From positions 1 to 64,000 of the forward strand of contig JACOST010000032.1 of the NCBI GenBank assembly GCA_016178705.1: a stretch of DNA of 64,000 nt, given 5' to 3'. A program made the position numbers and the translations under genes. Shown here piece after piece: positions 778 through 39,062 of the stretch. Below the pieces are notes generated by a model that was not told the DNA's origin, ran no database searches, and was given only the letters and a program-made list of their open reading frames with translations. The stretch is from Deltaproteobacteria bacterium (lineage in GTDB: Bacteria; Desulfobacterota; Binatia; HRBIN30; JACQVA1). Position 1 is the first letter of the stretch; each line of letters begins with the position of its first letter.

Positions 778-804
778 CGTTTCGGCGACCGGGCAAGCAC
801 GAGA

Positions 805-3314: not shown

Positions 3315-3645
3315 GCGGCTACCCTCCTTCAAACTCTTGCACGGGTGGTGGGGCTTCTTGCTTGCCCTCCTTGGTGTCTGGCACCGCTGCCGACAGTCGG
3401 TGCTAGGCAATCACGAGCAACTCTACGTCGTGGCAACGCCTGTGCCAGCGTGCAGTCGATGGAAACGTATAAACCGAGCGACGCGCAGAGCGATCACCGA
3501 GACAGGATCGCCTCAACCGGCTCTGCCCGTTTTTCAAAGCAGATGTAAGAGTTTCAATTGGGGTACGCTGCAGACGCTGCAATCGAGCGGATTGCTCGCT
3601 TGATCGAGTCGGCGCGACGCTTGCCGTCCGGGACGGCTTTGATTG
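3315..3645. other. Intergenic region between beta-propeller and VOC genes
   Basis: About 330 bases with no supported gene. Both flanking genes are on the minus strand, so this holds the leader of the beta-propeller gene (Shine-Dalgarno at about 3321-3327) and the 3' region of the VOC gene. No repeat family or strong terminator was seen. Confidence 0.4.
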
Positions 3646-4023
3646 TTATTCGTACGTCCGGATTTCGATGAGATGCCGGCTCGGGTCGAAGAAGTAGAGG
3701 GCCTTTCCCATGCCCTTGGCGCCCATTTCTCTTCCCGGTCCCTTCATGCTGCCGACGGCATCGAACGCGTCGCCGAATTCGATTCCCACCGCCTTCACAC
3801 GGTCGAACACCGCTTCGAACTCCGCACTCGACATCGCAAACGCGAGGTGATCTCCACCCTGCGTGCCCCACGGTGCGAGTTGAATCGTCAGCGCCGGAGT
3901 GACGCGGACAACGGTGAACGGGCCGTCGCTGCCTTCGAGAGCGAATCCGAGAATCTCAGCGTAGAACTTCGCGCTCGCCTGAACGTCCCCTACCGCCAAG
4001 ATCAAGTGATCGAGTTCTGCCAT
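3646..4023 (-). CDS. VOC (glyoxalase/bleomycin-resistance) family protein
   Basis: A 125-residue single-module vicinal-oxygen-chelate protein. It opens with LDHLILAVGDVQASAKFYAEILGF, whose His is the usual first metal ligand, and ends with ALYFFDPSRHLIEIRTYE, whose Glu is the usual last ligand; the middle His is in GDHLAFAM. These proteins dimerise to form a metal site, but the reaction cannot be read from the sequence. A GTG codon lies directly before the ATG; the GGAGG eight bases upstream suits the ATG at 4023 best. It lies just downstream of a DUF1003 gene on the same strand. Confidence 0.8.
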   Translation of the reverse strand: MAELDHLILAVGDVQASAKFYAEILGFALEGSDGPFTVVRVTPALTIQLAPWGTQGGDHLAFAMSSAEFEAVFDRVKAVGIEFGDAFDAVGSMKGPGREMGAKGMGKALYFFDPSRHLIEIRTYE

Positions 4024-4686: not shown

Positions 4687-7311
4687 CTAAACGGGATCGG
4701 CGCGGTCGAGCAAACGCACTTCGCCGCGCCGTCCGTCGACTTCGATGAGGTCGCCGGTCCTGATGATCTGCGTCGCCGGGCCGACGTTGACCACGGCCGG
4801 GATGCCGTACTCGCGCGCCACAATGCTGCCATGGCTCAGTGCGCCACCGAGGTCCATGACGATGGCCGCCGCCGGCAGAAAATACGGCGTCCAACCGGGG
4901 TCGGTGAATGGAGCGACGAGAATCTCTCCCGCCAGCACGCGTTCCTCGCTGTCGGCGCGCAGGATGACGCGCGCACGGCCAGTGACGACGCCGGGGCTAA
5001 CGGCCAGTCCGCGCAGCACGGAGGTCGGAGCGGCGCTCGCGGGCCGCATGGTATGACGGCGCGGATCGAAGCGGCCCACGATAACCGGGGCCGGAGTCAG
5101 CGCAACGTTCTCGACGTACTCCGCGCGTCGCTTGGCGACCAGGATACGAGGGTCAAATGTCGCTTCGCCATGAACCACAGCGGCAAGCTCTGTCAGATCG
5201 AAAAACAACACGTCGTCGCGCTCCGCCACAACGCCACGAGCGGCGAGCCGCGCACCAAGTTCGAGCAGCGTCGCCCGCGCCACCGCGATGCGTCGGACCG
5301 CTTCGCTCTTCACATTCTCGCGCAGCGCCAGCCCACCTTGCGCGCGTTTGAGCAACCAACCAAACACGCGTCCTCGCACGGGGCCAAGTCGGCGCTCGCA
5401 CGCGCGCGTGAGCACGGCCCGGTCAACGGAACGCTGTCGATGGGTTGCAACTGGGCTGGCCGCTTCACTCGCCAGGTAGCTACGCAGCAAGGACAACACG
5501 TAGTCAGGTTGTTCGCGCCAGCGCGGCACGGCCACATCAACCTCGACGCGCGTGTGGTGTCCGTGTTGCGCCATGAACGCGTCCCACTGCGCGATAAACG
5601 CTCGGCCCCCTTCACCCTCCGCGAGCGCGGCGCGGACACTCGCAAAGGACGCTCCGGCGGCGAATACTTGGCTCGGTAGCGCGCGCGCCGTTTCGGCCAA
5701 GCGCCACAAATCCAAACCGGCTTCGGCCGAATCGAGGCCACCCACGCCTGAAAGCAATCGGCTGACGATCGCACCATCTGCATCGCCGAGCCAACGCCGA
5801 CAGATCGTCTCCAATGGCGCGCCACACGCCAGGCCAGCGAGCGAGTAGATGAATCCCTCTCCGAAGGTGTCGAAGTCATCGAACGCGTGATCGAGATGCG
5901 CGAGCAATGCCGCGTCGCCCATCGTCGTCAAATCGTGCCGTTCGAGCGCGGCGGTCGCGCTGCGCAACTGGGCGAGCAGCGAGCCGCCGCGCGCGCTCAG
6001 GTGGCGCAGAAACCAGACCAGGGTGGACGGCAACCGCACGATCATCCGCCAGCCCGACACATTGAGCGCGGGCAAGTCTCGCCGCGTCAGTTGGGCGAGC
6101 GCGGATGCCAATTGCTGATCCCCGCCAAAGGTCTGCACCGCGTCGACGCGGAGAAATCGCACGCTCGACAGCGCCGCCATGATCGTATTCATGTTGAAGT
6201 AGGCGCGACCCGCCACCAACCCAACGAGTGCATTCTGTTCGAGGTGGAACGCCAGCCGCGAGAACACGACCCGCAGCAGTGCGTCGACCAGGCGACTCAC
6301 CACCGAGAAGGTCATGGGAGTCAGCACATCGGGGAGGATCTCGCCGGTGTTGGTGTTCGCCCACACTTGACGGTCGGCCGGATCATCCGTACCGAGCCCG
6401 GCCGTCACTGCACGCGCTTGCAAGAGAAAGATCTCGCCATCGGCGATCGCCCACTCGATGTCCTGCGGACCGCCGAATGCGCGCTCGATAGCGACCCCCA
6501 ACTCCGCTAGCCGACGGGTCTGCGCAGCATCGAGACAGGGCCGCTGGGCTCGCTCGGGTGCTACGGATTGCTCCCGCGTGCCGCCCGCGCCGTCCATTTC
6601 GAAGGACTGCACCAACTCGAAGGGCTGCACCGCCGCGTGCTGCTCGACGACGGCGAGCGTGTGCTTGTCAATCACGAATCGCGCCGGCGTCACACGCCCG
6701 GATACGAGCACCTCGCCCAAACCGAACACCGCTTCGATCACGACGCGGTCGCTGCGTGCCGCCACGGGGTCGCAAGTGAACAGCACGCCGGAGACCTCTG
6801 CAGGTACGCAGCGCTGCACAACCACCGCCATCGTCACATCGTCCGAGAGCCCGTGCTGTGCGCGATACGCCGCCGCGCGCTCGCTCCACAAAGACGCCCA
6901 GCACTGGCGCACTGCTCGACCGCATGCCTCCATGCCGGCGACGCCGAGTACGGTATCGTGTTGACCCGCAAATGAATGTCCCGCGCCATCCTCCGCGGTT
7001 GCGGATGAGCGCACCGCCAACGACTCGGCGCCGAGCGTGCGCATGGCCTCGCCGATTTGTGCGGCGAGCTGCGCGTCGAGCGGCGCTCCCATGATCGCCG
7101 CGCGCAACGCCCTGCCCCGCATCGCGCCATGCACATCGACCCGCGCCAGGTGTGCGCGATACGCCTGGGTCGTGACCACGAACGCCGGCGGCACCGGCAC
7201 TCCGAGATTCATCAGACGGACAAGACTGGCGGCCTTGCCGCCGAGTTGCTCGACCGCCGCGTCAGGGGTCGGAAGCGGGACGATCACGCCGCTCACGTTC
7301 GTCGAGCGCAT
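4687..7311 (-). CDS. PEP-synthase-like phosphotransferase, rifampin phosphotransferase (RPH) type
   Basis: An ATP-dependent dikinase-type enzyme of about 874 residues. The N-terminal pyruvate/phosphate-dikinase ATP-binding domain shows GGKAASLVRLMNLGVPVP, VRSSATAEDGAGHSFAGQ and IEWAIADGEIFLLQARAV. A large unassigned middle domain follows. The C-terminal phosphohistidine domain has LGGALSHGSIVAREYGIPAV, where His accepts phosphate. There is no PEP-binding barrel after this domain, so the layout (ATP domain, substrate domain, swivelling His domain) and length match rifampin phosphotransferase-like proteins rather than true PEP synthase. Substrate unknown. A TTG at 7341 is an alternative start; the ATG at 7311 is preferred, but neither has a clear Shine-Dalgarno. 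Confidence 0.82.
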   Translation of the reverse strand: MRSTNVSGVIVPLPTPDAAVEQLGGKAASLVRLMNLGVPVPPAFVVTTQAYRAHLARVDVHGAMRGRALRAAIMGAPLDAQLAAQIGEAMRTLGAESLAVRSSATAEDGAGHSFAGQHDTVLGVAGMEACGRAVRQCWASLWSERAAAYRAQHGLSDDVTMAVVVQRCVPAEVSGVLFTCDPVAARSDRVVIEAVFGLGEVLVSGRVTPARFVIDKHTLAVVEQHAAVQPFELVQSFEMDGAGGTREQSVAPERAQRPCLDAAQTRRLAELGVAIERAFGGPQDIEWAIADGEIFLLQARAVTAGLGTDDPADRQVWANTNTGEILPDVLTPMTFSVVSRLVDALLRVVFSRLAFHLEQNALVGLVAGRAYFNMNTIMAALSSVRFLRVDAVQTFGGDQQLASALAQLTRRDLPALNVSGWRMIVRLPSTLVWFLRHLSARGGSLLAQLRSATAALERHDLTTMGDAALLAHLDHAFDDFDTFGEGFIYSLAGLACGAPLETICRRWLGDADGAIVSRLLSGVGGLDSAEAGLDLWRLAETARALPSQVFAAGASFASVRAALAEGEGGRAFIAQWDAFMAQHGHHTRVEVDVAVPRWREQPDYVLSLLRSYLASEAASPVATHRQRSVDRAVLTRACERRLGPVRGRVFGWLLKRAQGGLALRENVKSEAVRRIAVARATLLELGARLAARGVVAERDDVLFFDLTELAAVVHGEATFDPRILVAKRRAEYVENVALTPAPVIVGRFDPRRHTMRPASAAPTSVLRGLAVSPGVVTGRARVILRADSEERVLAGEILVAPFTDPGWTPYFLPAAAIVMDLGGALSHGSIVAREYGIPAVVNVGPATQIIRTGDLIEVDGRRGEVRLLDRADPV

Positions 7312-7372
7312 GGCGGGTGAGACGAACGCGCGCGGCGACAATTCATCTGGTCAACTGAGCGCCGCCCGCGTA

Positions 7373-7515
7373 GTGCCCCCTCGATGCGTCGCCCTTCGAT
7401 ACGAGGCCTTCGGCTTCTACTCCGGACGACTCCTCGGGGAAGCGGTTCCTCTTCACCTACGTTCCACACTCCGTTTGCCCGAGTAGATCGCGAAGCGATC
7501 GTATCGAGGGCCCTT
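7373..7515. repeat. Dispersed palindromic element R7, copy a (full length)
   Basis: About 140 bases built of nested inverted repeats: GCCTTCGGC near the left end, ACTCCTCGGGGAAGCGG against CCGTTTGCCCGAGTAG, and CCCTTCGATACGAGG against CGTATCGAGGG. The same modules in the same order occur reversed at 59473-59602 and partly at 58200-58283. It fills most of the gap between two minus-strand genes. It encodes nothing and looks like a small non-autonomous mobile element. Confidence 0.75.
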
Positions 7516-7550
7516 CGTTTGAAGGTCTCGCTGAATCGAATCTCTATCGT

Positions 7551-8159
7551 TCACGGCTTCGGAATTCGCAACGTCTTGCTGATCATCAGACTTCCCGACA
7601 GCGCGAACAGCAGCGACACGAGGTGCATGCGGATACCGAACGGCTGCACCGGCAGCAACGCCTCATTGCGGTAGAGGATCAGCAGAAGCCCGAGCGGTAC
7701 GATGCTGGTCGGGATCGGCGTGCCCTCGAAGTGCGTGACCTTGCCGCCCTCGCCGGCCAACTCCTCTGCTGTGATGTTGAAGCGCGCGAGCCGGCTGAGC
7801 CCGCACACGGCGAAATAGATGAGCAAGGCCTGATCCAACGCGGTGTTCAGGCCGACCGCGAAGGCAATCGCAGCGGGCGCGACACCAAACGAGATCACAT
7901 CGGCGAGCGAGTCCATCTCGCGGCCCATCGGCGACGCCTTGTGACGCCAGCGTGCGACCCGTCCATCGAGCAGGTCGAACACGATCGCCAAAGGAACCAG
8001 GACGACCGCCACGTAGAGCTGCGCCGTCTCATGGCTCGCCACAAATCGCATCGCGTGAAACACCGCCGCGATCCCACAGCATCCGTTCGCGATCGTCAGC
8101 AGATCCGCGAAATGAAAACCGCGAATCATCGAAAAATGTTTTGGCTGCGCCCGCTCCAT
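7551..8159 (-). CDS. pssA: CDP-diacylglycerol--serine O-phosphatidyltransferase
   Basis: Catalyses transfer of a phosphatidyl group from CDP-diacylglycerol to serine in the inner membrane, the first committed step to phosphatidylethanolamine. The CDP-alcohol phosphotransferase signature D-G-x2-A-R-x8-G-x3-D-x3-D is complete (DGRVAR ... GREMDSLAD). The protein has 202 residues with about six hydrophobic spans and opens with FHFADLLTIANGCCG, the typical PssA N-terminus. An ATG ten codons downstream (8129) is an alternative start. It is minus-strand like its neighbours but separated from them, so a monocistronic unit is likely. Confidence 0.88.
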   Translation of the reverse strand: MERAQPKHFSMIRGFHFADLLTIANGCCGIAAVFHAMRFVASHETAQLYVAVVLVPLAIVFDLLDGRVARWRHKASPMGREMDSLADVISFGVAPAAIAFAVGLNTALDQALLIYFAVCGLSRLARFNITAEELAGEGGKVTHFEGTPIPTSIVPLGLLLILYRNEALLPVQPFGIRMHLVSLLFALSGSLMISKTLRIPKP

Positions 8160-8258
8160 AGTCGCCCCCCTCCGAGCAGGGGGACTATACGTGCGGATGC
8201 GGCGGAAGTGGAACCGCCGCGACGCGGGTCGGACCCGCGAGCACGGCGCTGGATGACG

Positions 8259-8639
8259 TTAGCCGGCGGCCCGCGCCAACGCCGGCGACTCGGTCGCGGG
8301 AGTCTCCGTAGGGCGGCGCGGCGCGTCGAGCAAACGCCGATGCCACGCGGCGATGCCGCGCCGCAGGTACTCCGGATTGATGTCGAGCGTCTCGCTGATG
8401 TTCTCGAAGGAAAACACCCCTTCGTTGCTGGGGCACGCGATCCATTCGACAGCCTCGGCGAACAACTCACGGCCGATGCGGTCGTCGGCGACGATGTACT
8501 TGCGGTAGTCGTCGAGCGCATTTTCCAACACGGCCAACATCAGGCGTTTCTCGTTCGAGAGCGCCGCCCGGCGGCGGCGTGCCGCAACCAGTTGGTCGGT
8601 GATCAAGACATCCGGTTCAAACAAGCCGCGATCACTCAT
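8259..8639 (-). CDS. Conserved hypothetical protein
   Basis: A 126-residue soluble, mostly helical protein with no recognised catalytic motif. The core runs EKRLMLAVLENALDDYRKYI, then RELFAEAVEWI, then FSFENISETLDINPEYLRRG. This combination recurs in small uncharacterised proteins that I associate with deltaproteobacteria; the last segment looks like a helix-turn-helix, so a DNA-binding role is possible but unproven. The C-terminus (PTETPATESPALARAAG) is disordered. It lies between pssA and the cold-shock gene, all on the minus strand. Confidence 0.65.
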   Translation of the reverse strand: MSDRGLFEPDVLITDQLVAARRRRAALSNEKRLMLAVLENALDDYRKYIVADDRIGRELFAEAVEWIACPSNEGVFSFENISETLDINPEYLRRGIAAWHRRLLDAPRRPTETPATESPALARAAG

Positions 8640-8727
8640 TCCGTGTGCTCCCTATCCGTAACATTGGGGCGGCGTGCTGCCGGCACCGCGAGGCCATGCG
8701 GTGGCCATTTGGTCGAGCTGATGACGA

Positions 8728-8761
8728 AAAGACCGTGGAGGCCCGCTCTGGGCCTCCACGG
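8728..8761 (-). terminator. Intrinsic terminator of the cold-shock gene
   Basis: On the minus strand a perfect 12-bp stem (CCGTGGAGGCCC / GGGCCTCCACGG) with a 5-base loop is followed by TCTTTTC. It sits only a few bases after the cold-shock stop codon. Confidence 0.9.
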
Positions 8762-8768
8762 GAATTCG

Positions 8769-8969
8769 TTACAGCTTGGTAACGTTGGACGCTTGCGGTC
8801 CCTTTTTGCCTTGGGTCACGTCGAAACTGACCTTCTGGCCTTCGTCGAGACTGCGGTAGCCTTCGCCGACGATCGCGGTGTGGTGAACGAACACATCGAC
8901 ACCATCGTCGCAGCTGATGAAGCCAAATCCCTTCTCGGCATTGAACCATTTCACTGTTCCTTGAGCCAT
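8769..8969 (-). CDS. Cold-shock domain protein
   Basis: A 66-residue CspA-type single-stranded nucleic-acid-binding protein that acts as an RNA chaperone or transcription antiterminator. RNP1 (KGFGFISC) and RNP2 (VFVHHTAI) are both present, and the length is that of a single OB-fold domain. Gly-Tyr-Arg-Ser-Leu in the loop after RNP2 is usual. AGGAGG lies 7 bases before the ATG. A strong terminator follows directly, so it is a single-gene unit. The long empty region upstream could hold a structured 5' leader. Confidence 0.95.
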
Positions 8970-9499
8970 GCGCTTCCTCCTTTCTTGCTTTATTCGTCAC
9001 TGGGAAGCTGCTGGATCCGGAACGCGATAGTGATTGCGTATAAGCGAGCCGAAGAGCTGTGCTCCGCGGCTCCAAAGGAACTGCTGTTTCTCCCCGTTGA
9101 GACTGCGCACGTTTCTAACCGACTTGCGGCCGAAGTACAAGATCGAAATGCAATTCGACCCTGGCCCGGGAACCGAGGCGGAATTGCGCCCGCGCCGCCC
9201 AAGATGCCGCGGATGTTGCCGCGGATGATGCCGAACCCCCATCCCCGCCCCGGGACGCACCGCCGTGCGCCCCTACGAGATTCTGCCTTCTCGTCCGTGG
9301 GTGGGCACGGCGTGCGCCCTCCGCCGGTCGCTGCCACTGGACGACCCCTCTTCGTTCATTGGCCCACCACAGGAGCGCCGGGCTTGTCTGAGCCGGATTT
9401 CGAAGGACGATAGCGATATGCAAGTAGCGTTGCCGACACGCGTCGAAGCCGATACAAGCGCGAGGTGGCTGTCGACACGTCGCCGGACCTTCCCGCCGC
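8970..9499. other. 530-base divergent intergenic region
   Basis: Lies between the divergently read cold-shock gene and the RND transporter. Several short open frames exist, but none has a ribosome site together with recognisable protein features. It presumably carries promoters for both sides and a leader of the cold-shock mRNA; no repeat of the families found elsewhere is present. Confidence 0.4.
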
Positions 9500-30061: not shown

Positions 30062-30085
30062 CGTTATGCTCGTGTTGGTATAACG
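30062..30085. promoter_or_regulatory. Palindromic operator, copy 1 (porin-tupABC operon)
   Basis: CGTTATGC, eight bases, GTATAACG: an inverted repeat with one mismatch against the copy at 34210. It ends 24 bases before the porin ATG. The half-site and spacing resemble ModE-type boxes (CGNTAT-type halves around a short spacer). A ModE-like regulator is encoded 6 kb downstream. Confidence 0.72.
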
Positions 30086-30109
30086 CGCCGGTCTGAAGGG
30101 AGGGGGGCA

Positions 30110-31600
30110 ATGCGCAAACACGTTGCATCGGTGTTGACAGTGCTGGGGTGCGTCCTGATCGGGGCAGCATCGGTGCGTGCCGATGATGCGGCGCTGCTAG
30201 ATGTTCTACGCCAGAAGCAGGTACTGACCCCGCAGGAGTACGAACGGCTCAAGGGTAGCGAGTTGACGCCGGCGCAGCGCGCAGGATTGATCGATGTCCT
30301 GCGCGACAAGGGCGTGCTGACCAAGGACGAAGCCGCCAAATTGGAGCCCGGCGCTCCGGTCGCGCCCAATGCTCCCACCGTGGCCCAGGCCGCGGCGAAA
30401 CCCGCCTCACTGCCGCAGGTCGGTTACGACGAAGGCTTCTTCGTGCGGTCGCAAGACGGCAACTTCAACTTGCGCTTTAACGGACGTGTCTCGAGCAACT
30501 TCTATTTCTTCGAACCCAATACTTCGCAAGTCGATACCGAAACGATCGATCGCGCGCGTTTGAGCGCCGACGCGACCTTCTACAAGTACTTTCGAATGCG
30601 ACTGGAGAATGATTTCGCGTTCGCCTCGGGTCTGCGCGACGCCTTCATTGCGATGACGCCGATGCCCGAGGCCAACGTGCAGATCGGGCAATACAAGATT
30701 CCGTTCAGCTACGAGGAACTGCTGTCGAAGCGGTATATCGATTTCGTCGAACGCGCCGCCGTGGTCAACAGCACGGTGGGCAGCACGAACGATCCTTCGC
30801 GCGACATCGGCGTTATGCTCTACGGCCAGTTCGTCAACAAGACGCTCCAGTATCAGTTGGCAGGCATGAATGGCGCAGGGCAGAATCGCAGCGACAACAA
30901 TGCCTCCAAAGACGTCGACTTCCGCACCGTGGTCGCCCCGTTCACCAGCGCTGGCCCCGAGCATCTGCGCAGCCTGAACGTGGGCGCTGGCGTCACCTAC
31001 GGAGTGCAACCCAGCGACACGGGCACCAGCACGAGCAGCATCGCCGGCACGACGGAAACCGGCTTCACCTTTTATCCGGCGGTGCAGCGCAATGGTGAAC
31101 GCTCGCGTTACGACGTCAGCGGGACGTGGTTCGATGGCCCGTTCTCGCTCAGCAGCGAGTACATTCAGACCTACGAATCGCGCAACGGATTTGGGGTCAA
31201 GGGCAGCAACCTTCCGGGTCTTCACACCGACGGCGCCTATGTCGGCGGCACCTGGCTGCTGACCGGGGAGACCAAGCCATACAACGCGCGCCTTCATCCC
31301 GCGCACGCGTTGTGGGACACGAACAGCCCCGGTTGGGGCGCGTGGGAAGCGGCGCTGCGCTACGAGTACTTCAAGCTCCGGCACGGCGGCGGCATCTTGG
31401 CCAACGGCACGGCGAACCCCGCGTTGGACAACCGTTACGACGCCCTCGTCGCCGGCGTCAATTGGTACCCCAACGAGTTCCTGCGCTTCTCGGTCAACTA
31501 CTTGTACGGCTCCTTCGAAAATGCCGGGAAGAACATGTCGCCCAATCCGGCCCAGCACTCGAACAACGCGGTACTGGGCCGCGCGCAGTTGGAGTTCTAA
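30110..31600 (+). CDS. Phosphate-selective porin O/P family protein
   Basis: A 496-residue outer-membrane beta-barrel protein of the OprO/OprP family. A signal peptide (VASVLTVLGCVLIGAASVRA) leads into a short helical region (LLDVLRQKQVLTPQEYERLK, repeated as LIDVLRDKGVLTKDEAAKLE), a usual N-terminal feature, and then a barrel with alternating strands and the terminal aromatic residue QLEF. FMRLENDFAFASGLRDAFI-like strands and NVQIGQYKIPFSYEEL match the family. AAGGGAGGGGGG precedes the ATG at 30110. It is the first gene of the tup operon, so it probably lets oxyanions through the outer membrane. The stop abuts the tupA start (TAA-ATG). Confidence 0.85.
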   Translation: MRKHVASVLTVLGCVLIGAASVRADDAALLDVLRQKQVLTPQEYERLKGSELTPAQRAGLIDVLRDKGVLTKDEAAKLEPGAPVAPNAPTVAQAAAKPASLPQVGYDEGFFVRSQDGNFNLRFNGRVSSNFYFFEPNTSQVDTETIDRARLSADATFYKYFRMRLENDFAFASGLRDAFIAMTPMPEANVQIGQYKIPFSYEELLSKRYIDFVERAAVVNSTVGSTNDPSRDIGVMLYGQFVNKTLQYQLAGMNGAGQNRSDNNASKDVDFRTVVAPFTSAGPEHLRSLNVGAGVTYGVQPSDTGTSTSSIAGTTETGFTFYPAVQRNGERSRYDVSGTWFDGPFSLSSEYIQTYESRNGFGVKGSNLPGLHTDGAYVGGTWLLTGETKPYNARLHPAHALWDTNSPGWGAWEAALRYEYFKLRHGGGILANGTANPALDNRYDALVAGVNWYPNEFLRFSVNYLYGSFENAGKNMSPNPAQHSNNAVLGRAQLEF

Positions 31601-32437
31601 ATGGTCACGCGACGCATCCTTTCCGGACTCTCAATCTCGGCAGCGCTCTCCGTCCTGCTCAGCGTCACCGCCGCATCGGCGCAAGAGCATGTGCGACTGT
31701 CGACGACCACCAGCACGGAGAACTCCGGACTGCTCGCGGCGATCTTGCCGACATTCGAGCAACGCTTTCATCTCAAGGTCGACGTCATCGCCGTCGGTAG
31801 CGGCAAGGCGTTGAAGCTTGCCGAGAACGGCGATGTCGATGTCGTGCTTTCGCATGCGCCAGAATTGGAAGACGCGTTCGTCAAGGCCGGCTTCGGCGTC
31901 AATCGCCGCGAGGTCATGTACAACGACTTCATCATCGTCGGCCCACCGAGCGATCCGGCAAAGCTGCGCGGCAGCAGCGGCGCGGTCGATGCGTTCAAGC
32001 AGATCGCCGCCGCGCAGGCGACCTTCATCTCGCGCGGTGACGAGTCCGGCACGCATCAAAAGGAAAAGGATCTGTGGAAGGCGGTCGGGATCATCCCGAG
32101 CGGAGCGTGGTACGTCTCCGCAGGGCAAGGCATGGGCGAGGTGTTGCTGATGGCGAACGAACGTCAAGCCTATACGCTCGCCGATCGCGGAACCTACATC
32201 GCCTTCAAGCAGAAGCAGGATCTCACGATCACCAATGAGGGGGATCCCGCCCTGTTCAATCCGTACACCATCAGCGCTGTGAATCCGGCGAAACAACCGC
32301 ATGCGAGATACATCGAGGCGATGGAACTGATCGCTTGGATCACAGCGCCCGATGGGCAGCGGGCGATCGCCGGTTTCACGATGGATGGCCAAGTGCTATT
32401 TCACCCCACTGCGGTGCCGCCAGGCGCCGCGCCTTAG
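31601..32437 (+). CDS. tupA: Tungstate ABC transporter substrate-binding protein
   Basis: A 278-residue periplasmic binding protein. After a signal peptide (cleavage after TAASAQ) it has RLSTTTSTENSGLLAAILP, the TTTS-x-x-SGL oxyanion motif of TupA, VDVIAVGSGKALKLAENGD, VVLSHAPELEDAFV and FISRGDESGTHQKEKDLW, all diagnostic. TupA binds tungstate in preference to molybdate in characterised members. It begins directly at the end of the porin gene and is followed by the permease and ATPase genes in one operon under the palindrome at 30062. Confidence 0.92.
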   Translation: MVTRRILSGLSISAALSVLLSVTAASAQEHVRLSTTTSTENSGLLAAILPTFEQRFHLKVDVIAVGSGKALKLAENGDVDVVLSHAPELEDAFVKAGFGVNRREVMYNDFIIVGPPSDPAKLRGSSGAVDAFKQIAAAQATFISRGDESGTHQKEKDLWKAVGIIPSGAWYVSAGQGMGEVLLMANERQAYTLADRGTYIAFKQKQDLTITNEGDPALFNPYTISAVNPAKQPHARYIEAMELIAWITAPDGQRAIAGFTMDGQVLFHPTAVPPGAAP

Positions 32438-32445
32438 GACACACC

Positions 32446-33135
32446 GTGGCGTTAGGCGACGCGCTGAGCGGCGCGCTGCGACTGCTGCTCACACTGGACA
32501 CGCACGTATGGTCCGCAGTGATCGTCTCGTTGCGCGTGTCGCTGCTGGCGACTGTGCTCTCAGTGTTGATCGGCTTGCCGATTGGCTTTCTTGTCGCAGC
32601 GCGCCAATTCAGCGGCCGGCGCGTCATCGAGATCCTGCTGAATACCGCGACGGCACTGCCAACCGTGGTGGTGGGCCTCCTGGTCTACGCCCTGCTCTCT
32701 CGTCGCGGCCTGCTCGGGCCGCTCGGGTTGCTCTACACCCAATCCGCCATGGTCATCGGCGAGACTATTCTCGTCGCGCCGTTGATGGCCGCGCTGACGG
32801 TCGCCGTGGTCAGCGGCGCCGACCCACGCATTGAGGAGACCGCGTTGACGCTCGGCGCGTCGCGTTTCGGCGCGGCGATCAGCGTGTTCGTCGAAACGCA
32901 GCGGGGATTGCTCGCGGCGATCACGACCAGTTTCGGGCGATTGATCTCGGAGCTCGGCATCGCCCTGATGGTCGGCGGCAACATCCTCGACAGCACCCGC
33001 ACCATGACAACCACGATCGCCCTGGAAACCAGCAAGGGCGACTTGGCGCTCGGCTTCGCGCTCGGACTGATCCTGCTTAGTGTGGCGCTGGCGGTGAACG
33101 GCGCAGTCGCGGTATTGACTCCGAGTCGTGCCTGA
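32446..33135 (+). CDS. tupB: Tungstate ABC transporter permease
   Basis: A 229-residue inner-membrane permease with about five spans. The EAA-type coupling loop is EETALTLGASRFGAAISVFVE, and PTVVVGLLVYALLSRRGLLG is typical of the TupB/ModB group. The GTG at 32446 follows the tupA stop by eight bases and gives the normal length; the open frame extending upstream overlaps tupA and is not coding. The 3' end overlaps the ATPase start by eight bases, so the three tup genes are translationally linked. Confidence 0.9.
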   Translation: MALGDALSGALRLLLTLDTHVWSAVIVSLRVSLLATVLSVLIGLPIGFLVAARQFSGRRVIEILLNTATALPTVVVGLLVYALLSRRGLLGPLGLLYTQSAMVIGETILVAPLMAALTVAVVSGADPRIEETALTLGASRFGAAISVFVETQRGLLAAITTSFGRLISELGIALMVGGNILDSTRTMTTTIALETSKGDLALGFALGLILLSVALAVNGAVAVLTPSRA

Positions 33136-34135
33136 ACCGCTCTATGGCCTCCGCGATGTAACCCTCGAGTACGGCTCACGCCGCGTACTCGACATCGCTA
33201 CGTTGGATTTCGCGCGCGGCGGCGTCACCGCATTGGTCGGACCCAACGGCGCCGGCAAGAGCACGCTGCTGCGCATCCTGGCGTTTCTACTTCCGCCGAC
33301 ACGTGGCACGATCACCTTTGATGGCGCACGCATCGACAACCGCGACACCGCGTTCGGGGCGGCGCGCCGGCGCGTCACACTCGTCGCTCAATCGCCGTTC
33401 ATCTTCCATCGCTCGGTACGCGCCAACGTCGCCTACGGCCTGCGCGCGCGCGGAGTGCGCAACGACGAACGCGCCATGGCGGCCCTGGCGGCGGTCGGCC
33501 TCGGCGACTTCGCCGATCTTCCAGCTTGGAAACTCTCCGGCGGCGAGGCACAGCGTGTAGCGGTGGCGCGTGCCCTCGCCATCGATCCACCGGTGTACTT
33601 ATTCGATGAACCGACCGCGAACGTCGATCGCGAACACGTTGCCATCATCGAGACAGTGATCGCGCAACTCGCCGCGGCCGGCAAGACGGTGATTCTCACG
33701 ACGCACGATCTCGACCAGGCGCATCGCCTGAGCGACACCGTCCTGTCCGTGGTCGCGGGCCACGTCACCGCCGCTCCGTTGCTCAACGTGCTGCGCGGCG
33801 TCACTACCCGTCACAACGGCGAGTCGTACTTCGACAGCGATGGGTTGCACATCGAGATCGCCACTGACACCGCGCCTCAAGTGATTGCGATCGACCCCGA
33901 AGACATTCTGATCTCGCGCGAGCCGCTGCACTCGAGCGCGCGCAATCACGCGGCCGGGGCCATCCTGAAAGTCGAGCGCGACGGTGCCAGTGTGCTGGTC
34001 ACCGTCGACTGCGGCATCGCCACCCCAATGATCGCCCGCATCACCCAGCACTCGTACACGGACCTCGGCCTCAACCTCGGCATGCGCGTGTGGTTGACGT
34101 TCAAGTCTTCCGCGATTCACATTCTCGACATGTAG
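33128..34135 (+). CDS. tupC: Tungstate ABC transporter ATP-binding protein with C-terminal MOP/TOBE domain
   Basis: A 335-residue ATPase. Walker A is GPNGAGKST, the signature is LSGGEAQRVAVARAL, Walker B is VYLFDEP and the switch His is in ILTTHDLD. After residue about 215 comes a C-terminal part that ends in a molybdate/tungstate-binding TOBE-like domain (AGAILKVERDGASVLVTVDC ... LGMRVWLTFKSSAIHIL), which could sense oxyanion and inhibit transport. The start is GTG at 33128, overlapping tupB. Last gene of the operon. Confidence 0.9.
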   Translation: MPEPLYGLRDVTLEYGSRRVLDIATLDFARGGVTALVGPNGAGKSTLLRILAFLLPPTRGTITFDGARIDNRDTAFGAARRRVTLVAQSPFIFHRSVRANVAYGLRARGVRNDERAMAALAAVGLGDFADLPAWKLSGGEAQRVAVARALAIDPPVYLFDEPTANVDREHVAIIETVIAQLAAAGKTVILTTHDLDQAHRLSDTVLSVVAGHVTAAPLLNVLRGVTTRHNGESYFDSDGLHIEIATDTAPQVIAIDPEDILISREPLHSSARNHAAGAILKVERDGASVLVTVDCGIATPMIARITQHSYTDLGLNLGMRVWLTFKSSAIHILDM

Positions 34136-34209
34136 CGGCCCGGGAGCGCGCTTGCGACTTCTCGACCACCACTGGGTGACGCCGTCGACATCGGATTGCC
34201 TAGTTGCAG

Positions 34210-34233
34210 CGTTATGCTCTCAATGGCATAACG
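34210..34233. promoter_or_regulatory. Palindromic operator, copy 2 (aldehyde dehydrogenase)
   Basis: A perfect inverted repeat CGTTATGC, eight-base spacer, GCATAACG (with one further flanking G/C pair). It ends 31 bases before the ATG of the dehydrogenase. It is the same box as at 30062, with equal half-site length and spacing, and indicates shared regulation. Confidence 0.75.
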
Positions 34234-34264: not shown

Positions 34265-35668
34265 ATGAACTCGTACCCGAACGTGATCGCTGGTCGCCTG
34301 GTGAACTCGCCGCAGCAAGACGACGTCATCAATCCCGCCCTCGGCAAGCCGTTTGCGACCTGTGCGCGCGGCACCAGCGAGCAGTTGAACGAGGCGGTCA
34401 CCGCGGCCGCAGAGGCCTTCAAGACTTGGCGCAAGGATCAAGCCTTTCGGCGCCAAACGTTGAATGAGTGCGCCGCGGCGATTCAGGAAAAGGCGCAAGA
34501 CATCGGCGTCGTGCTCTCGCAGGAGCAAGGCAAGCCGCTCGCCGCCGCTGTCGGCGAAGTCTTCGGTGCTTCGATCTGGTTCAGCTACTTCGCCAACCTG
34601 CGGCTCGAGCCGGAGATCCTTCAGGACGATGCCGAGAAGCGCATCCAGATCGTGCGCAAGCCGCTTGGCGTCGTCGCCGCCATCACGCCGTGGAACTTTC
34701 CGGTCATCTTGATGGCGTGGAAACTGGCACCCGCATTTCTGGCCGGCAATACGGTCGTGGCGAAGCCGTCGCCGTTCACGCCGCTCAGCTCGCTGCTCGT
34801 CGGCGATATTCTGAAGGACGTTCTGCCCCCGGGAGTTCTCAGCGTCATCGCCGGCGACGGCGCGCTTGGCGCCGAGTTGTCGGGGCATCCGCTTGTGCGC
34901 AAGATTTCGTTCACGGGCAGCGTCGCCACCGGCAAGAAGGTCATGGGCTACGCGGTGGAGGATCTGAAGCGCGTGACGCTGGAACTGGGCGGCAATGATC
35001 CCGCGATCGTCCTGGATGACGTTGATCCGAACGCGGTCCTCGACGGGCTCTTCTGGGGCGCGTTCCAGAACTCGGGACAGATCTGCAGTGCGATTAAGCG
35101 GCTCTACGTTCACGAGAAGGTCTACCAGCCGATCGTCGCCGGATTAATCGAGCGCGCACGCAGCGTGAAAGTCGGCAACGGCATGGAGCCGGACACTCAA
35201 CTCGGTCCGATCAACAACCAGATGCAACTCGACAAGGTCATCGGCATGGTCAACGAGGCCAAGAAGCAAGGCGCGAAAATCGAAATCGGTGGAGAACGGC
35301 TGGACAGTCCTGGCTACTTCTATCCGCCCACCATCGTGACCAATGCGCACGCCGGTATGAAGCTGGTCGACGAAGAGCAATTCGGCACCGCACTGCCGAT
35401 CATCAAGTACAGCAATCTGGACGACGCCATGGAACAGGCGAACAACACCCACTACGGCCTCGGCGCGTCGGTGTGGACGGGCGATGCGAAGCGCGGGGAA
35501 GCGTTGGTTCAAGAGATCGAGTCGGGTACCGGTTGGGTCAACCAGCACTTGGACTTGGGGCCCTCCACGCCGTTCGGTGGCTGTAAGTGGAGTGGCATCG
35601 GTTACGAAAACGGCAAGTGGGGCTACCAGGAGTTCACCGAACTACAAGTCGTCAACACCAAGAAGTAG
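34265..35668 (+). CDS. NAD(P)-dependent aldehyde dehydrogenase
   Basis: A 467-residue member of the ALDH superfamily that oxidises an aldehyde to the acid. The NAD-binding part has GVVAAITPWNFPVILMAWKL and FTGSVATGKKVM; the general-base Glu is in TLELGGNDPAIVLDDVD; the catalytic Cys is in NSGQICSAIKRLYVHE. Length and motifs are complete. GGAGGAG precedes the ATG at 34265. It carries the same operator as the tungstate operon although ALDH-fold enzymes need no metal, so it may support or replace a tungsten-dependent aldehyde oxidoreductase; no such gene is in the window. Confidence 0.9.
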   Translation: MNSYPNVIAGRLVNSPQQDDVINPALGKPFATCARGTSEQLNEAVTAAAEAFKTWRKDQAFRRQTLNECAAAIQEKAQDIGVVLSQEQGKPLAAAVGEVFGASIWFSYFANLRLEPEILQDDAEKRIQIVRKPLGVVAAITPWNFPVILMAWKLAPAFLAGNTVVAKPSPFTPLSSLLVGDILKDVLPPGVLSVIAGDGALGAELSGHPLVRKISFTGSVATGKKVMGYAVEDLKRVTLELGGNDPAIVLDDVDPNAVLDGLFWGAFQNSGQICSAIKRLYVHEKVYQPIVAGLIERARSVKVGNGMEPDTQLGPINNQMQLDKVIGMVNEAKKQGAKIEIGGERLDSPGYFYPPTIVTNAHAGMKLVDEEQFGTALPIIKYSNLDDAMEQANNTHYGLGASVWTGDAKRGEALVQEIESGTGWVNQHLDLGPSTPFGGCKWSGIGYENGKWGYQEFTELQVVNTKK

Positions 35669-35685
35669 TCGCTCATCCGATCGAA

Positions 35686-35712
35686 GCCCCGCACTGCGCG
35701 CCGGTGCGGGGC
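35686..35712 (+). terminator. Hairpin after the aldehyde dehydrogenase gene
   Basis: A 9-bp perfect stem GCCCCGCAC / GTGCGGGGC with a 9-base loop lies 17 bases after the stop codon. There is no U-tract, so it is either a Rho-assisted terminator or an mRNA-end hairpin. Confidence 0.6.
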
Positions 35713-35765
35713 CGCTCTGGCACGGCGCGCGCGACCGGTCTAGGCTCAGTCAGAAGGAGGCCGGC

Positions 35766-35969
35766 ATGGAACTTAGCGCTCGCAATCAACTCAAAGGCAC
35801 GGTCACCAAAGTCACGATCGGCAACGTGATGGCTGAAGTACACGTGCAGATCGGTGGCAATGAACTTGTGTCGGTCATTACGCGTGGCTCGGTCGAGCGC
35901 CTCGCGATCAAGGTCGGCGATGCGGTTACCGCAATCGTCAAAGCGACCGAGGTCATGCTCGGGAAGTAG
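35766..35969 (+). CDS. mop: Molbindin (molybdate/tungstate-binding MOP protein)
   Basis: A 67-residue single MOP domain: ELSARNQLKGTVTKVTIGNV opens it, and VHVQIGGNELVSVITRGSVE carries the conserved oxyanion-binding region, with AIKVGDAVTAIVKATEVML at the end. Such proteins assemble as hexamers and store or buffer molybdate and tungstate in the cytoplasm. AGAAGGAGG lies at the right distance from the ATG at 35766. The gene is convergent with the ModE-TupA fusion gene and the two overlap by 17 bases (35953-35969). Confidence 0.92.
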   Translation: MELSARNQLKGTVTKVTIGNVMAEVHVQIGGNELVSVITRGSVERLAIKVGDAVTAIVKATEVMLGK

Positions 35970-37083
35970 CCGCAGCCGGGCGCGCCACCGCGTGACCGCC
36001 GACGCGGTAGGTGGCGATCAGTTCTTGTACCGCCGGCGACGTGAACCATCCGATCAATGCCATCGCTTCGACGTAGCGCGTTTGTGGGTGATGATCGGGG
36101 TTGGTGGCGAGGACGGAATACGCGTTCATCAGACAGGCGTCGCCAGCGAACAGAATGTCGAGCGCGAGCGAATCCGCGAGCGCAACCACCGTACTGCGAT
36201 CCGCCAGCAGATACGCTCCTTCCCGGCTGGCGCGCCGCAGCACATCGGCCATGCCCGACCGCGCGCGTCGGAACCACGGGCCAGGCGTGATGCCAGCGGC
36301 GCGCAGCAACGCGCGCTCACGCTGGTGGGTACCGGAGCCGTCATTGCGCGACAGAAACGGAGCCCTCGTGGTGGCGATGCGCTGCAACGCAACGCGTACG
36401 CCGCGCGCCCCGCGCACGGCAGCGGGATCGTCGCGCGGACCGACCACGACGAAGTCGTTGGTCATCACCGGCCGTCGATTCAGCACGTCGCCGTGACTGA
36501 CGGCCCGCGCTTCGGCTTCTGGAGCGTGCGCCAGCACGATGTCGGCACGACCGCTATGCGCCAACCGCAGCGCCGCGCCACTGCCCACCGGCAGCACGTC
36601 GACAGCGATCCCGAATCGGCGCATGAACGGCGGCAGCAGCAACGGCAGCAGCCCGCTGTCGACCACGCTGGTGGTGGTGGCGAATCGCAAGGTGTCCGCT
36701 GACGCGCGCGACACCGCAGCCGCCCCACCGAAGAAATGCGTTGCGGAGCGCGCGACCGCGTGCCGCTGCTCGGAATGAAACACGCGCAAGCGCGTGATCA
36801 GATCCTCCCCTGTGGGGGTCAACCGGCTGCCCCCGCCGCTGCGACCGCCGGTTTGTGTACTGATCAGTTTTACCCCGAGGGCGGCTTCGGCTTGGCGGAT
36901 TTTTCCCCAAGCATCGCGATACGAGATGCGCAGTCGCTTCGCTGCCGCGTTGAGGGAGCCGACCTCGCGCAGGGCTTCGAGAATCTCCAGATGGCGTTCA
37001 CCCAACACCGGCTGACCTTTGCGGGTCAGGAACACGCGGTTGCGCGCTTCGAGACGCGGGAGATGACGCCCATTGAGTTTCAC
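35953..37083 (-). CDS. Fusion regulator: ModE-type DNA-binding domain with TupA-like sensor domain
   Basis: A 376-residue protein joining two known folds. Residues about 20-125 form a ModE/LysR-type winged helix (LEALREVGSLNAAAKRLRIS, YRDAWGKIRQAEAALG, TGGRSGGGSRLTPTGEDLI). Residues about 130-370 align with the TupA encoded nearby: ATTTSVVDSGLLPLLLPPFM against the TTTSTENSGLL region, VLPVGSGAALRLAHSGRADI, SRNDGSGTHQRER. There is no signal peptide, so the binding domain is cytoplasmic and most likely senses tungstate or molybdate. It lies convergent to mop within the tup region and is the best candidate to bind the two palindromes at 30062 and 34210. Confidence 0.85.
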   Translation of the reverse strand: MKLNGRHLPRLEARNRVFLTRKGQPVLGERHLEILEALREVGSLNAAAKRLRISYRDAWGKIRQAEAALGVKLISTQTGGRSGGGSRLTPTGEDLITRLRVFHSEQRHAVARSATHFFGGAAAVSRASADTLRFATTTSVVDSGLLPLLLPPFMRRFGIAVDVLPVGSGAALRLAHSGRADIVLAHAPEAEARAVSHGDVLNRRPVMTNDFVVVGPRDDPAAVRGARGVRVALQRIATTRAPFLSRNDGSGTHQRERALLRAAGITPGPWFRRARSGMADVLRRASREGAYLLADRSTVVALADSLALDILFAGDACLMNAYSVLATNPDHHPQTRYVEAMALIGWFTSPAVQELIATYRVGGHAVARPAAATSRA

Positions 37084-37174: not shown

Positions 37175-38230
37175 ATGCGGCTCGACGTTCAAGGGCATCC
37201 GATTCACACTCGCGCCTTCGCGGTCACGTTGCGGCAGGGAAACGACGGCAAGCTCGACGTTCAAGGGTACGTGCTCGATCTGCGCAAGCGCGGCTTCGTG
37301 CCGGTGGCGGGCGATCTGCAAGGCACGGGGATCATCCATCATATGGCGCTCGATGCGATCGTTGATCCCGCGAGCGCCACGATCGAATGCATTACGGCCC
37401 AGCAGTTCAACGTCGCCTTCGAGCCGTCAGTGGAGACGCTGGGTGTGACCCGCGGCGAGCAATGCCGAGATCCGATCAGAGCCATCGAAGCGATTGCCGG
37501 CGCGCGGCTCGACGCCGGCTTCTCGCGCCGGCTGAGCGCGGCAATCGGCGGCCCGCGCGGCTGTTCGCATTTGCTGACGCTGGCGCATCTGCTGGGTTCA
37601 ACCGCGGCGTGGGCGATCGAGCGCGATCGCACGCTACACGGCGCGGCAGCGCAACGCCCAATCGGTCAGCGCATGTTTCGCCGCGACTTGATCATCGACG
37701 GCTTCGAAACCCCAGAAGCCAACGGCACGATGGCGCTGACGATCCAACTCGCGGACTTGCACTTCGCTCCGTCCGCAACACCGGTGCGCCCAATGGACCG
37801 CTTCGCCGCTGATCAAGAAATTCGCGGCGTCCTGACGATCGGATTCCCGACCTTCGAGCTCAGCCAGATCGCCGTCGCCGAGCGCCGCCGTGACGCGGCG
37901 ACGTTCGACGCCTCCGAGTGGAGCGACCTCGACACGGCGGTCGCCGGACTGGTCGGCCTGCGCTTCGGCTTCGGCATCACCGCCGAACTCCTGCAACGGC
38001 TGGGTGAACGCGCCGCCGATCGCCCGCTGCTCGACGCACTGCTGATGGTCGCGCCGGCGTTGATCCAGTGCACCGCCGCGTTGTCAGATAGCTGGCCCGC
38101 CGCGTTCAAGAAGAGCGCGTCGCTCGTCGGCATGGGCGGCCTACCCAACTCCTGTTACATGTGGCGGAGCGACGGTGCGCTGTCGCGCGCCCGTGAAGCC
38201 GAAGGCGGCGAGCCACCGCGTCGGCCGTGA
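37175..38230 (+). CDS. DUF2889 family protein
   Basis: A 351-residue cytosolic protein with the DUF2889 core in its first 200 residues: THTRAF-like opening, GYVLDLRKRGFVPVAGDLQG, and GPRGCSHLLTLAHLLGSTAA, where CSHL is the family landmark. The C-terminal part (LDTAVAGLVGLRFGFGITAE, GGLPNSCYMWRSDG) is specific to longer members. Function unknown. Its TGA stop (38228-38230) is followed at once by inverted repeat R3. It is divergent from the fusion regulator (92 bases apart). Confidence 0.75.
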   Translation: MRLDVQGHPIHTRAFAVTLRQGNDGKLDVQGYVLDLRKRGFVPVAGDLQGTGIIHHMALDAIVDPASATIECITAQQFNVAFEPSVETLGVTRGEQCRDPIRAIEAIAGARLDAGFSRRLSAAIGGPRGCSHLLTLAHLLGSTAAWAIERDRTLHGAAAQRPIGQRMFRRDLIIDGFETPEANGTMALTIQLADLHFAPSATPVRPMDRFAADQEIRGVLTIGFPTFELSQIAVAERRRDAATFDASEWSDLDTAVAGLVGLRFGFGITAELLQRLGERAADRPLLDALLMVAPALIQCTAALSDSWPAAFKKSASLVGMGGLPNSCYMWRSDGALSRAREAEGGEPPRRP

Positions 38231-38387: not shown

Positions 38388-39062
38388 ATGCCTGTCCGCG
38401 AGTTCCCAGACCCGCGCTCCGCCAACGCCGACGGCATCGTTGCGGTCGGTGGTGATCTGCATCCCGAATCGCTGTTGCTCGCGTATCGGCAAGGGATCTT
38501 TCCGTGGCCGGTGGAAGCAGTTCCGCTGCTGTGGTTCTGCCCGGCCGAGCGCAGCGTGTTGGCGTTCGCCGATCTGCACATTCCGCGCAGCTTGGCGCGG
38601 GCGCGCACGCACACAACGCTGCGCTTCACCATCGACGAGGCGTTTGCGGAGGTCATTCGCGCCTGCGCCGCCACGCCGCGACCGGGGCAGAACGGTACGT
38701 GGATCACGACTGAGGTCATCGCCGCGTACGTGCGATTTCACCGGCTGGGCCACGCCCACAGCGTCGAAGCCTGGCAGGGCGCACGGTTGGTCGGCGGCGT
38801 GTATGGCGTCGACGTCGACGGCGCGTTTGCCGCGGAGAGCATGTTCTACGACGAACCCAATGCGTCGAAACTGGCGCTGCTGCACCTCATCGAACACTTG
38901 CAAGCGCGCAGACTCGATTGGCTCGACACGCAGGTGATGACCCCGCATGTCGCGCGGCTGGGCGCGCGGTTGATCCCGCGCGACGAATTTCTCGACAAGC
39001 TGCGCGGCACGCGGGCGCGCGGCCTGCACATATTCCCTCGCTCCGGTTTGGAACGGCGATAG
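38388..39062 (+). CDS. aat: Leucyl/phenylalanyl-tRNA--protein transferase
   Basis: A 224-residue enzyme that adds Leu or Phe from aminoacyl-tRNA to proteins with N-terminal Arg or Lys, marking them for ClpS/ClpAP. FPDPRSANADGIVAVGGDL, LLLAYRQGIFPWP and WFCPAERSVL are the usual opening blocks; GTWITTEVIAAYVRFHRLGH and AESMFYDEPNASKLALLHLI follow. Length is normal. The ATG at 38388 gives the canonical start; upstream sequence in the same frame is repeat R3. Confidence 0.93.
   Translation: MPVREFPDPRSANADGIVAVGGDLHPESLLLAYRQGIFPWPVEAVPLLWFCPAERSVLAFADLHIPRSLARARTHTTLRFTIDEAFAEVIRACAATPRPGQNGTWITTEVIAAYVRFHRLGHAHSVEAWQGARLVGGVYGVDVDGAFAAESMFYDEPNASKLALLHLIEHLQARRLDWLDTQVMTPHVARLGARLIPRDEFLDKLRGTRARGLHIFPRSGLERR

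What the first reader, a model, noticed from the sequence alone, without database searches (positions are those of the whole stretch)
30062..34233. Two copies of one palindrome define a tungstate regulon of porin-tupABC and an aldehyde dehydrogenase
Seen: CGTTATGC-N8-GTATAACG at 30062-30085 and CGTTATGC-N8-GCATAACG at 34210-34233, each 24-31 bases before a start codon; no third copy was noticed by eye. Known: ModE-family regulators bind similar A/T-rich palindromes. Inference: the ModE-TupA fusion protein binds them. Control of a metal-free ALDH by tungstate supply would be a substitution circuit, using ALDH when W is scarce.
Basis: partly seen in the sequence, partly recalled or inferred. Interest (0 to 1): 0.72.

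Follow-up and report, generated by a model that had tools for sequence, protein, structure and literature searches.

The report
Tungsten switch for uptake and ALDH
Two matching DNA operator sites appear to let a tungstate-sensing repressor switch on both tungstate uptake and a metal-free aldehyde dehydrogenase when tungsten runs short, so the cell can probably do without its tungsten enzymes.

Summary
Both palindromes are where stated. They are the only two sites in the 6.1-Mb genome with at most one mismatch.

They match ModE operators in arms and 24-bp length (PMC545781). In other families of the phylum the same dyad precedes tupABC operons with ordinary ModE genes, one of them box-porin-ModE-tupA.

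This genome's only ModE-type DNA-binding domain is in the ModE-TupA fusion. Its sensor keeps the residues implicated in TupA tungstate binding (PMC5517513).

In the 15 genomes of the order, all five sites with at most one mismatch lie before porin-tup (two) or an aldehyde dehydrogenase (three, one a truncated remnant). A relative carries a non-orthologous dehydrogenase in the same place, behind a weaker box. Twenty-eight ALDH homologues elsewhere in the class lack the box.

All four genomes with boxed ALDHs also encode AFOR-family (tungsten aldehyde oxidoreductase-type) proteins.

Best reading: a tungstate-responsive repressor controls tungstate uptake plus a tungsten-free isoenzyme. Operator identity is nearly certain. 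The regulator is very likely. The sign of control and the substitution role are inferred. New variant of a known kind.

The parts
30062..30085 (+). Operator 1, ModE-type 24-bp dyad CGTTATGC-N8-GTATAACG
   Evidence: orthologous site before porin-tupA in G078
30110..31600 (+). Outer-membrane porin, Porin_O_P (PF07396), first gene of the uptake operon
   Evidence: 136 bits; 63% identical porin behind the same box in G078
31601..32437 (+). TupA, periplasmic tungstate-binding protein
   Evidence: NF041772, 237 bits, below its cut-off of 400; PBP_like_2
32446..33135 (+). TupB, permease
   Evidence: NF041773, 177 bits, below cut-off; ABC_perm1 over cut-off
33128..34135 (+). TupC, ATPase with a C-terminal TOBE domain
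34210..34233 (+). Operator 2, ModE-type dyad CGTTATGC-N8-GCATAACG (perfect arms)
   Evidence: near-identical site before the 79% identical ALDH of G076
34265..35668 (+). NAD(P)-dependent aldehyde dehydrogenase, no metal cofactor; catalytic N144, E240, C274 present
   Evidence: PF00171, 492 bits
35766..35969 (+). Stand-alone Mop (molbindin) of one TOBE domain; membership of the operator-2 transcript is uncertain
   Evidence: not found beside the ALDH in G076 or in the G078 cluster
35953..37083 (-). Regulator: ModE-type winged HTH (about residues 27-111) fused to a cytosolic TupA-type tungstate-binding domain (about 124-371)

Best explanation
The two palindromes are operators of one small tungstate regulon. 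The regulator is the ModE-TupA fusion: a ModE-type winged helix reads the dyad, and a TupA-type domain, with no tandem Mop sensor, reads cytosolic tungstate. When tungstate is plentiful the liganded dimer sits on both boxes and blocks transcription of porin-tupABC and of the aldehyde dehydrogenase. When tungstate is scarce both are released: the cell takes up more tungstate and makes an aldehyde dehydrogenase that needs no tungsten, covering aldehyde oxidation that AFOR-family tungsten enzymes would otherwise do. Shown by sequence: the operators, their genome-wide uniqueness, their conservation before tup and ALDH genes, the sole ModE-type DNA-binding domain, the intact set of TupA ligand residues, and AFOR-family genes. 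Inferred: binding by the fusion, repression by the liganded form, and the substitution role.
For: Two near-perfect boxes in 6.1 Mb, both here. At up to 1 mismatch there are 5 places in 15 genomes of the order, all before porin-tup (2) or ALDH (3, one a truncated remnant). Exact boxes occur at 5 places in 4 of 148 class genomes. G076 keeps the box 61 nt before a 79% identical ALDH. G078 keeps an exact box before porin-tupA and a 2-mismatch box before a 38% identical, non-orthologous ALDH directly behind its fusion gene. 28 of 28 other ALDH homologues in class genomes have no box with 2 or fewer mismatches in the upstream stretch. Only one ModE-type HTH in the genome. The same dyad precedes tup operons with canonical ModE in other families. 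TTTS, H186, R246, T252 and D295 of the sensor match TupA ligand residues named in PMC5517513. AFOR_C matches: G000 4, G078 5, G075 5, G076 3 (one G076 hit is below the family cut-off). In 5 of 6 sites TTGC stands 5-7 nt before the box, with a -10-like YATRRC in its right arm. NAD-dependent aldehyde dehydrogenase and tungsten aldehyde oxidoreductase do the same step in Aromatoleum (PMC6365974).
Against: No binding, expression or ligand data exist. The generic promoter scan found no promoter at either box, and the consensus scores (6-8 of 12) are no better than random stretches. None of the four AFOR-family genes carries the box, so the supposed partner enzyme is not in the regulon. At 2 mismatches the order-wide count is not above the control (32 against 53 places), so the weak G078 ALDH site rests on its position alone. 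In G075 and G076 only contig-edge C-termini of the fusion are seen. The G075 ALDH is only an N-terminal remnant, possibly an assembly joint. TupA-type pockets with this arginine also bind molybdate (PMC5517513). Substrate overlap between this ALDH and the AFOR-family enzymes is unknown.
Confidence: 0.66

Rival explanations
1. The boxes are true operators of the fusion, but the ALDH is not a substitute for a tungsten enzyme. It is co-induced under tungsten shortage to clear toxic aldehydes that build up when tungsten enzymes fail, or it serves an unrelated step.
For: The AFOR-family genes themselves lack boxes. ALDH orthologues exist in genomes with no TupA or AFOR hit, such as G074, so the enzyme has a life outside tungsten metabolism. 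The regulated ALDH differs between G000 and G078.
Against: Two unrelated ALDHs occupying the same regulatory position, both in genomes with AFOR-family genes, suits a shared need for aldehyde oxidation when tungsten is short. The detoxification version is close to the main reading.
Confidence: 0.2
2. The regulator senses molybdate, or both oxyanions, and this is an ordinary molybdenum regulon.
For: ModE regulons are classically molybdate-responsive (PMC545781). TupA of D. alaskensis binds molybdate in the nanomolar range (PMC5517513). A Mop gene lies next door. In G076 the fusion's C-terminus neighbours modABC-like genes.
Against: In G000 the only TOBE-bearing transporter ATPase at strong score is TupC. 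The sensor is TupA-like, not ModA- or Mop-like, and the affinity reported for D. alaskensis TupA is about a thousandfold higher for tungstate (PMC5517513).
Confidence: 0.15
3. The fusion activates the ALDH when tungstate is plentiful, as classical ModE activates some genes, so the ALDH works with rather than instead of the tungsten enzymes.
For: PMC11980592 (passages) states that ModE both represses and activates. The promoter assignment over the boxes is weak.
Against: Box position relative to the start codon and to the upstream TTGC is alike at uptake and ALDH genes, and uptake genes are expected to be repressed when replete.
Confidence: 0.1
4. The box before the ALDH is a chance or hitch-hiking copy without function.
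For: Only a few genomes carry it, and it is absent from 28 ALDH homologues.
Against: At up to 1 mismatch the 15-genome order has 5 places, 3 of them within 61 nt of an ALDH or ALDH-remnant start. The flanks have diverged in G076 while the arms are kept.
Confidence: 0.04

Closest known systems
ModE regulon (E. coli and Geobacter type)
   Same: Operator dyad of 24 bp with CGNTAT arms and control of oxyanion uptake genes (consensus in PMC545781, passages read). ModE-type winged helix with the SYxxAW helix and GGG wing also present in canonical ModE of the phylum.
   Different: Sensor is a TupA-type domain instead of two Mop domains. Targets are tungstate uptake and a metal-free ALDH.
TaoR/TupR family of HTH-PBP tungstate regulators (Rajeev et al. 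2019, not held; seen through passages in PMC11980592 and PMC10102598)
   Same: A DNA-binding domain fused to a periplasmic-binding-protein-like sensor that governs tupABC and tungsten aldehyde oxidoreductase.
   Different: TaoR-like proteins are described with HTH-17 and PBP-like domains; here the DNA-binding part is ModE-type, the sensor matches PBP_like_2/TupA, the site is a ModE box, and the enzyme target is a tungsten-free ALDH rather than aor.
modE upstream of tupABC in Geobacter bemidjiensis (PMC2996986, passages read)
   Same: A ModE gene linked to tupABC.
   Different: The separate modE and tupA genes are not fused and no ALDH is reported in the passages read.
Cofactor-sparing isoenzyme circuits (B12-independent ribonucleotide reductase, Fe-hydrogenase against NiFe; PMC545781, passages read)
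   Same: An enzyme that does not need the cofactor is repressed when that cofactor is available.
   Different: Here the cofactor metal is tungsten and the pair would be ALDH against AFOR-family tungsten enzymes.
Tungsten-limited isoenzyme change in Pelobacter (PMC4275255, abstract and passages read)
   Same: Tungsten supply decides which aldehyde-oxidising enzyme is made.
   Different: There the alternative is a molybdenum enzyme, and a tungsten-free acetylating enzyme rose with, not without, tungstate. No operator is given in the passages read.

Membership tests
ModE-type operator | 24-bp dyad with CGNTAT...ATANCG arms | tested here: met
   against the consensus in PMC545781
ModE-type operator | found upstream of oxyanion transport genes served by a ModE | tested here: met
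ModE-type operator | bound by the ModE-type protein | not testable with these tools
   needs a gel shift or DAP-seq
ModE regulator | ModE winged-helix domain | tested here: inconclusive
   TIGR00637 72-75 bits, E about 1e-20, below the cut-off of 98.5; ModE structures 1b9m and 2ijl matched
ModE regulator | tandem Mop sensor domains | tested here: not met
   no TOBE match in the fusion protein; a TupA-type domain instead
TaoR family | excisionase-like HTH-17 DNA-binding domain | tested here: not met
   HTH_1 and ModE models match, no HTH_17
TaoR family | PBP-like sensor domain | tested here: inconclusive
   PBP_like_2 88 bits; PBP_like (PF12727) only 22 bits, below cut-off
TupABC transporter | TupA ligand residues TTTS, His, Arg, Thr, Asp | tested here: met
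   alignment columns against the residues named in PMC5517513
TupABC transporter | NCBIfam equivalog cut-offs | tested here: not met
   TupA 237 of 400, TupB 177 of 320, TupC 133 of 400 bits. TupA is the only model matched by the first protein; TupB is the second-best model and TupC ranks ninth for theirs
NAD(P) aldehyde dehydrogenase | PF00171 domain with catalytic Asn, Glu and Cys | tested here: met
Cofactor-sparing isoenzyme circuit | cofactor-free enzyme under the same operator as cofactor uptake | tested here: met
Cofactor-sparing isoenzyme circuit | cofactor-dependent counterpart in the same genome | tested here: met
   four AFOR_C proteins; shared substrate not known
Cofactor-sparing isoenzyme circuit | repression by the cofactor | not testable with these tools
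   needs transcript measurement with and without tungstate

The most novel reading that the evidence does not exclude
A ModE repressor exchanged its Mop-Mop sensor for a TupA-type tungstate sensor of the kind encoded by the neighbouring transporter gene, and this tungstate repressor independently recruited two unrelated metal-free aldehyde dehydrogenases in different genera, making a tungsten-sparing switch from tungsten to NAD aldehyde oxidation.
Probability: 0.5. Interest if true: 0.78.

Novelty: new variant of a known kind. Interest (0 to 1): 0.62.

Why it matters
Cofactor-sparing circuits are described for B12 and nickel (PMC545781). A clean tungsten case, with uptake and a tungsten-free isoenzyme under one operator, would show that tungsten supply is a real selective pressure in these bacteria and would link a class of orphan aldehyde dehydrogenases to it. 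The fusion would also give a compact genetically encoded tungstate sensor, and its pairing with a known operator makes the prediction testable with two DNA fragments and one protein.

Tried and rejected
Chance explanation for the palindromes: rejected by shuffles, a whole-genome scan and conservation in relatives.

Boxes before AFOR-family genes: none, so a regulon that includes them, as TaoR has for aor, is not seen here.

Other tungsten or molybdenum regulators in the genome: TIGR00637 finds only the fusion. PF12727 finds a 667-aa protein that I read by eye as a MoeA-type PBP fusion and a sub-threshold hit in the fusion itself.

Second oxyanion transporter: TOBE gives only Mop, TupC and one weaker hit on another contig (26 bits, just over the cut-off). 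A ModC without TOBE would be missed.

Named relatives of the fusion: two scans of genome contigs found none. The seeds need exact short peptides, so distant fusions could be missed. In 148 class genomes a full-length fusion match was seen in G000 and G078 only. The 395-genome phylum sample shows none among the listed rows besides G000, but its list was cut.

Plasmid records: 0 of 116 matching records cover 80% of the fusion.

Promoter at the boxes: the generic scan found none. The TTGC-box arrangement was noticed afterwards and is only suggestive; two of the sites are orthologous.

Mop as a conserved regulon member: not supported.

G010 exact box (L073): read as chance, before a lipoprotein-like ORF.

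Structure prediction was not run; homology to solved TupA and ModE structures was enough for the domain claims.

Literature: searches listed no paper that I recognised as describing a ModE-TupA fusion or ModE control of an aldehyde dehydrogenase. Only titles, abstract starts and the passages named in this report were read. One search was swamped by unrelated papers, one search used a name I mis-recalled, and most subscription papers are not held.
Full report
OBSERVATION. Both palindromes are present exactly as written. The first starts 48 nt before the porin start codon and the second 55 nt before the ALDH start codon, leaving gaps of 24 and 31 nt. In the 6,108,632-base genome no other place matches with 0-1 mismatch. 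The remaining matches listed have 3 mismatches and are fewer than for the reversed control pattern.

THE LOCUS. Reading along the + strand: operator 1, porin (PF07396), tupA, tupB, tupC with a TOBE domain, operator 2, an ALDH (PF00171, 492 bits), and a 67-aa Mop protein. On the - strand, tail to tail with Mop, lies the regulator gene 35953-37083. The regulator has a ModE-type winged helix (TIGR00637, 72 bits, below the cut-off of 98.5) followed by a TupA-type domain (NF041772, 143 bits, below its cut-off of 400). phmmer matches it to TupA structures (3lr1, 5my5) and ModE structures (1b9m, 2ijl). Residues discussed for tungstate binding in D. alaskensis TupA (TTTS, H59, R118, T124, D170; PMC5517513, passages) correspond to T136-S139, H186, R246, T252 and D295, and are kept in the G078 fusion too. 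I saw no signal peptide by eye.

THE BOX IS A MODE OPERATOR. The published consensus is ATCGNTATATA-N6-TATATANCGAT (PMC545781, passages), a 24-bp core with CGNTAT arms, as here. In a sample of 395 genomes of the phylum, 28 genomes including this one hold an exact CGTTATR-N10-YATAACG. There are 34 places by my count against 22 for the control, so many are chance. Of the 27 loci outside this genome (one per genome), 15 show a tblastn hit to HTH, Mop, TupA, TupB or TupC within about 1.5 kb, and 0 of 27 show an ALDH. Such hits can include generic LysR or ABC proteins. The clearest cases are: G296, box-porin-ModE(HTH-Mop-Mop)-TupA; G443, box-ModE-TupABC; G496, box-TupA; G424, box-TupA with ModE-like HTH and Mop behind it; G341, box-TupABC. 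The porin of G296 is Porin_O_P as well. In Geobacter bemidjiensis modE also lies upstream of tupABC (PMC2996986, passages). So operator 1 belongs to a wider pattern of ModE-type sites at tup operons.

THE REGULATOR. The fusion carries the only ModE-type HTH of the genome. The only PF12727 proteins are a MoeA-like one and, weakly, the fusion, so no TaoR-like rival is seen. Among 148 class genomes a full-length fusion match appears in G000 and G078 (66% identical). G075 and G076 show contig-edge C-termini of 54-72 residues that are 60-63% identical to the fusion sensor but only 36-42% to TupA. Two genome-contig scans found no named relative. G086, in another family, has an AFOR-family protein (read by eye), then a 113-aa HTH-only protein, then tupABC. 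With the ModE-tupA operons of family f43 this suggests how a neighbouring tupA-like gene could have become the sensor; that is inference.

THE ALDH SITE IS CONSERVED. In the 15 genomes of the order, 5 places have at most 1 mismatch: window x2, G078, G075 and G076. All five stand before porin-tup or an ALDH. G076: CGTTATGCTCTCGCCGGTATAGCG, 61 nt before a 79% identical ALDH on a contig other than the tup one. G075: an exact box 21 nt before a reading frame whose first 44 residues match the ALDH (43%, E=4e-5) and which then diverges, a remnant or an assembly joint. G078: an exact box before porin-tupA-fusion, and CGTTATGTTCTCGCTGGTATGGCG between the fusion gene and a different ALDH, 47 nt before its ATG. 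That ALDH is 38% identical to the window's, its best solved relative is 3b4w whereas the window's is 8yen, and no G078 match to the window ALDH listed is closer (best listed 36%). The weak G078 box has 2 mismatches against the broad pattern, and at that level the order-wide count (32) is not above the control (53), so it counts by position only. Twenty-eight other ALDH homologues (54-74% identical, L105-L132) have no box with 2 or fewer mismatches; one has a 3-mismatch look-alike. Among them are genomes with no TupA match, such as G074. In the whole class, exact boxes occur at 5 places in 4 of 148 genomes; the fifth, G010, looks unrelated.

HOW IT PROBABLY WORKS. In 5 of 6 sites TTGC begins 5-7 nt before the box, and the right arm supplies a -10-like YATRRC 17-18 nt further on. 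The chance of TTGC at such a spot is 0.014 per site in this window, but the motif was chosen after looking, two sites are orthologous, and overall promoter scores are not exceptional. If real, a bound dimer would cover the promoter and repress. Uptake genes are expected to be off when the metal is plentiful, so the liganded form should be the repressor, and the ALDH would share that sign. The genome encodes four AFOR-family proteins, one of them beside a pyridine-nucleotide oxidoreductase, as might fit an NAD-linked aldehyde oxidoreductase. All four genomes with a boxed ALDH or remnant have AFOR-family genes (4, 5, 5 and 3 matches; one G076 match is below the cut-off), whereas G074, with an unboxed orthologue, has none. 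In Aromatoleum a phenylacetaldehyde dehydrogenase and a tungsten aldehyde oxidoreductase do the same step, and the deletion mutant of the former has fivefold higher activity of the latter (PMC6365974, passages). Against simple generalisation: in Pelobacter the tungsten-limited alternative is a molybdenum enzyme, and a tungsten-free acetylating ALDH rose with tungstate (PMC4275255, abstract and passages).

COMPARISON. As a regulator it works like ModE on DNA and like the TaoR/TupR family in sensing with a PBP domain, but fails a defining feature of each: no tandem Mop sensor, and no HTH-17 domain. It is best called a ModE variant with a TupA-type sensor. As a circuit it resembles cofactor-sparing isoenzyme regulation described for B12 and nickel (PMC545781).

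VERDICT. Operators: nearly certain. Regulator: very likely. Tungstate as signal: likely. ALDH as tungsten-sparing isoenzyme: the most likely of several readings, unproved.

Noticed in passing
window 35766-35969 and 35953-37083: The stand-alone Mop gene and the fusion regulator gene run tail to tail and overlap by 17 bases at their 3' ends.
   Followed up: partly
window 35669-35765: Between ALDH and Mop lies a G+C-rich inverted repeat (seen by eye, no T run), which may separate Mop from the operator-2 transcript.
   Followed up: no
L087 (G086:C670) 1-3700: Gene order AFOR-family protein, HTH-only ModE-type protein of 113 aa, tupA, tupB, tupC in another family of the class: a possible precursor arrangement for the fusion.
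   Followed up: partly
L077 (G076:C153) 1-3967: The C-terminus of a fusion-type sensor at the contig edge faces modABC-like genes followed by an XRE-HTH plus PBP_like regulator.
   Followed up: partly
L041 (G078:C196) 5700-9400: In G078 the cluster is porin-tupA-fusion without tupB and tupC nearby; the regulator would then be under its own operator.
   Followed up: no
L191 (G296:C36): Box-porin-ModE(HTH-Mop-Mop)-tupA in a distant family: the porin seems a recurring partner of tungstate uptake.
   Followed up: partly
window 37175-38230: Gene next to the regulator encodes a DUF2889 protein of unknown function.
   Followed up: no
window 38390-39062 (+): Reading frame that looks by eye like leucyl/phenylalanyl-tRNA-protein transferase (recalled, not tested).
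   Followed up: no
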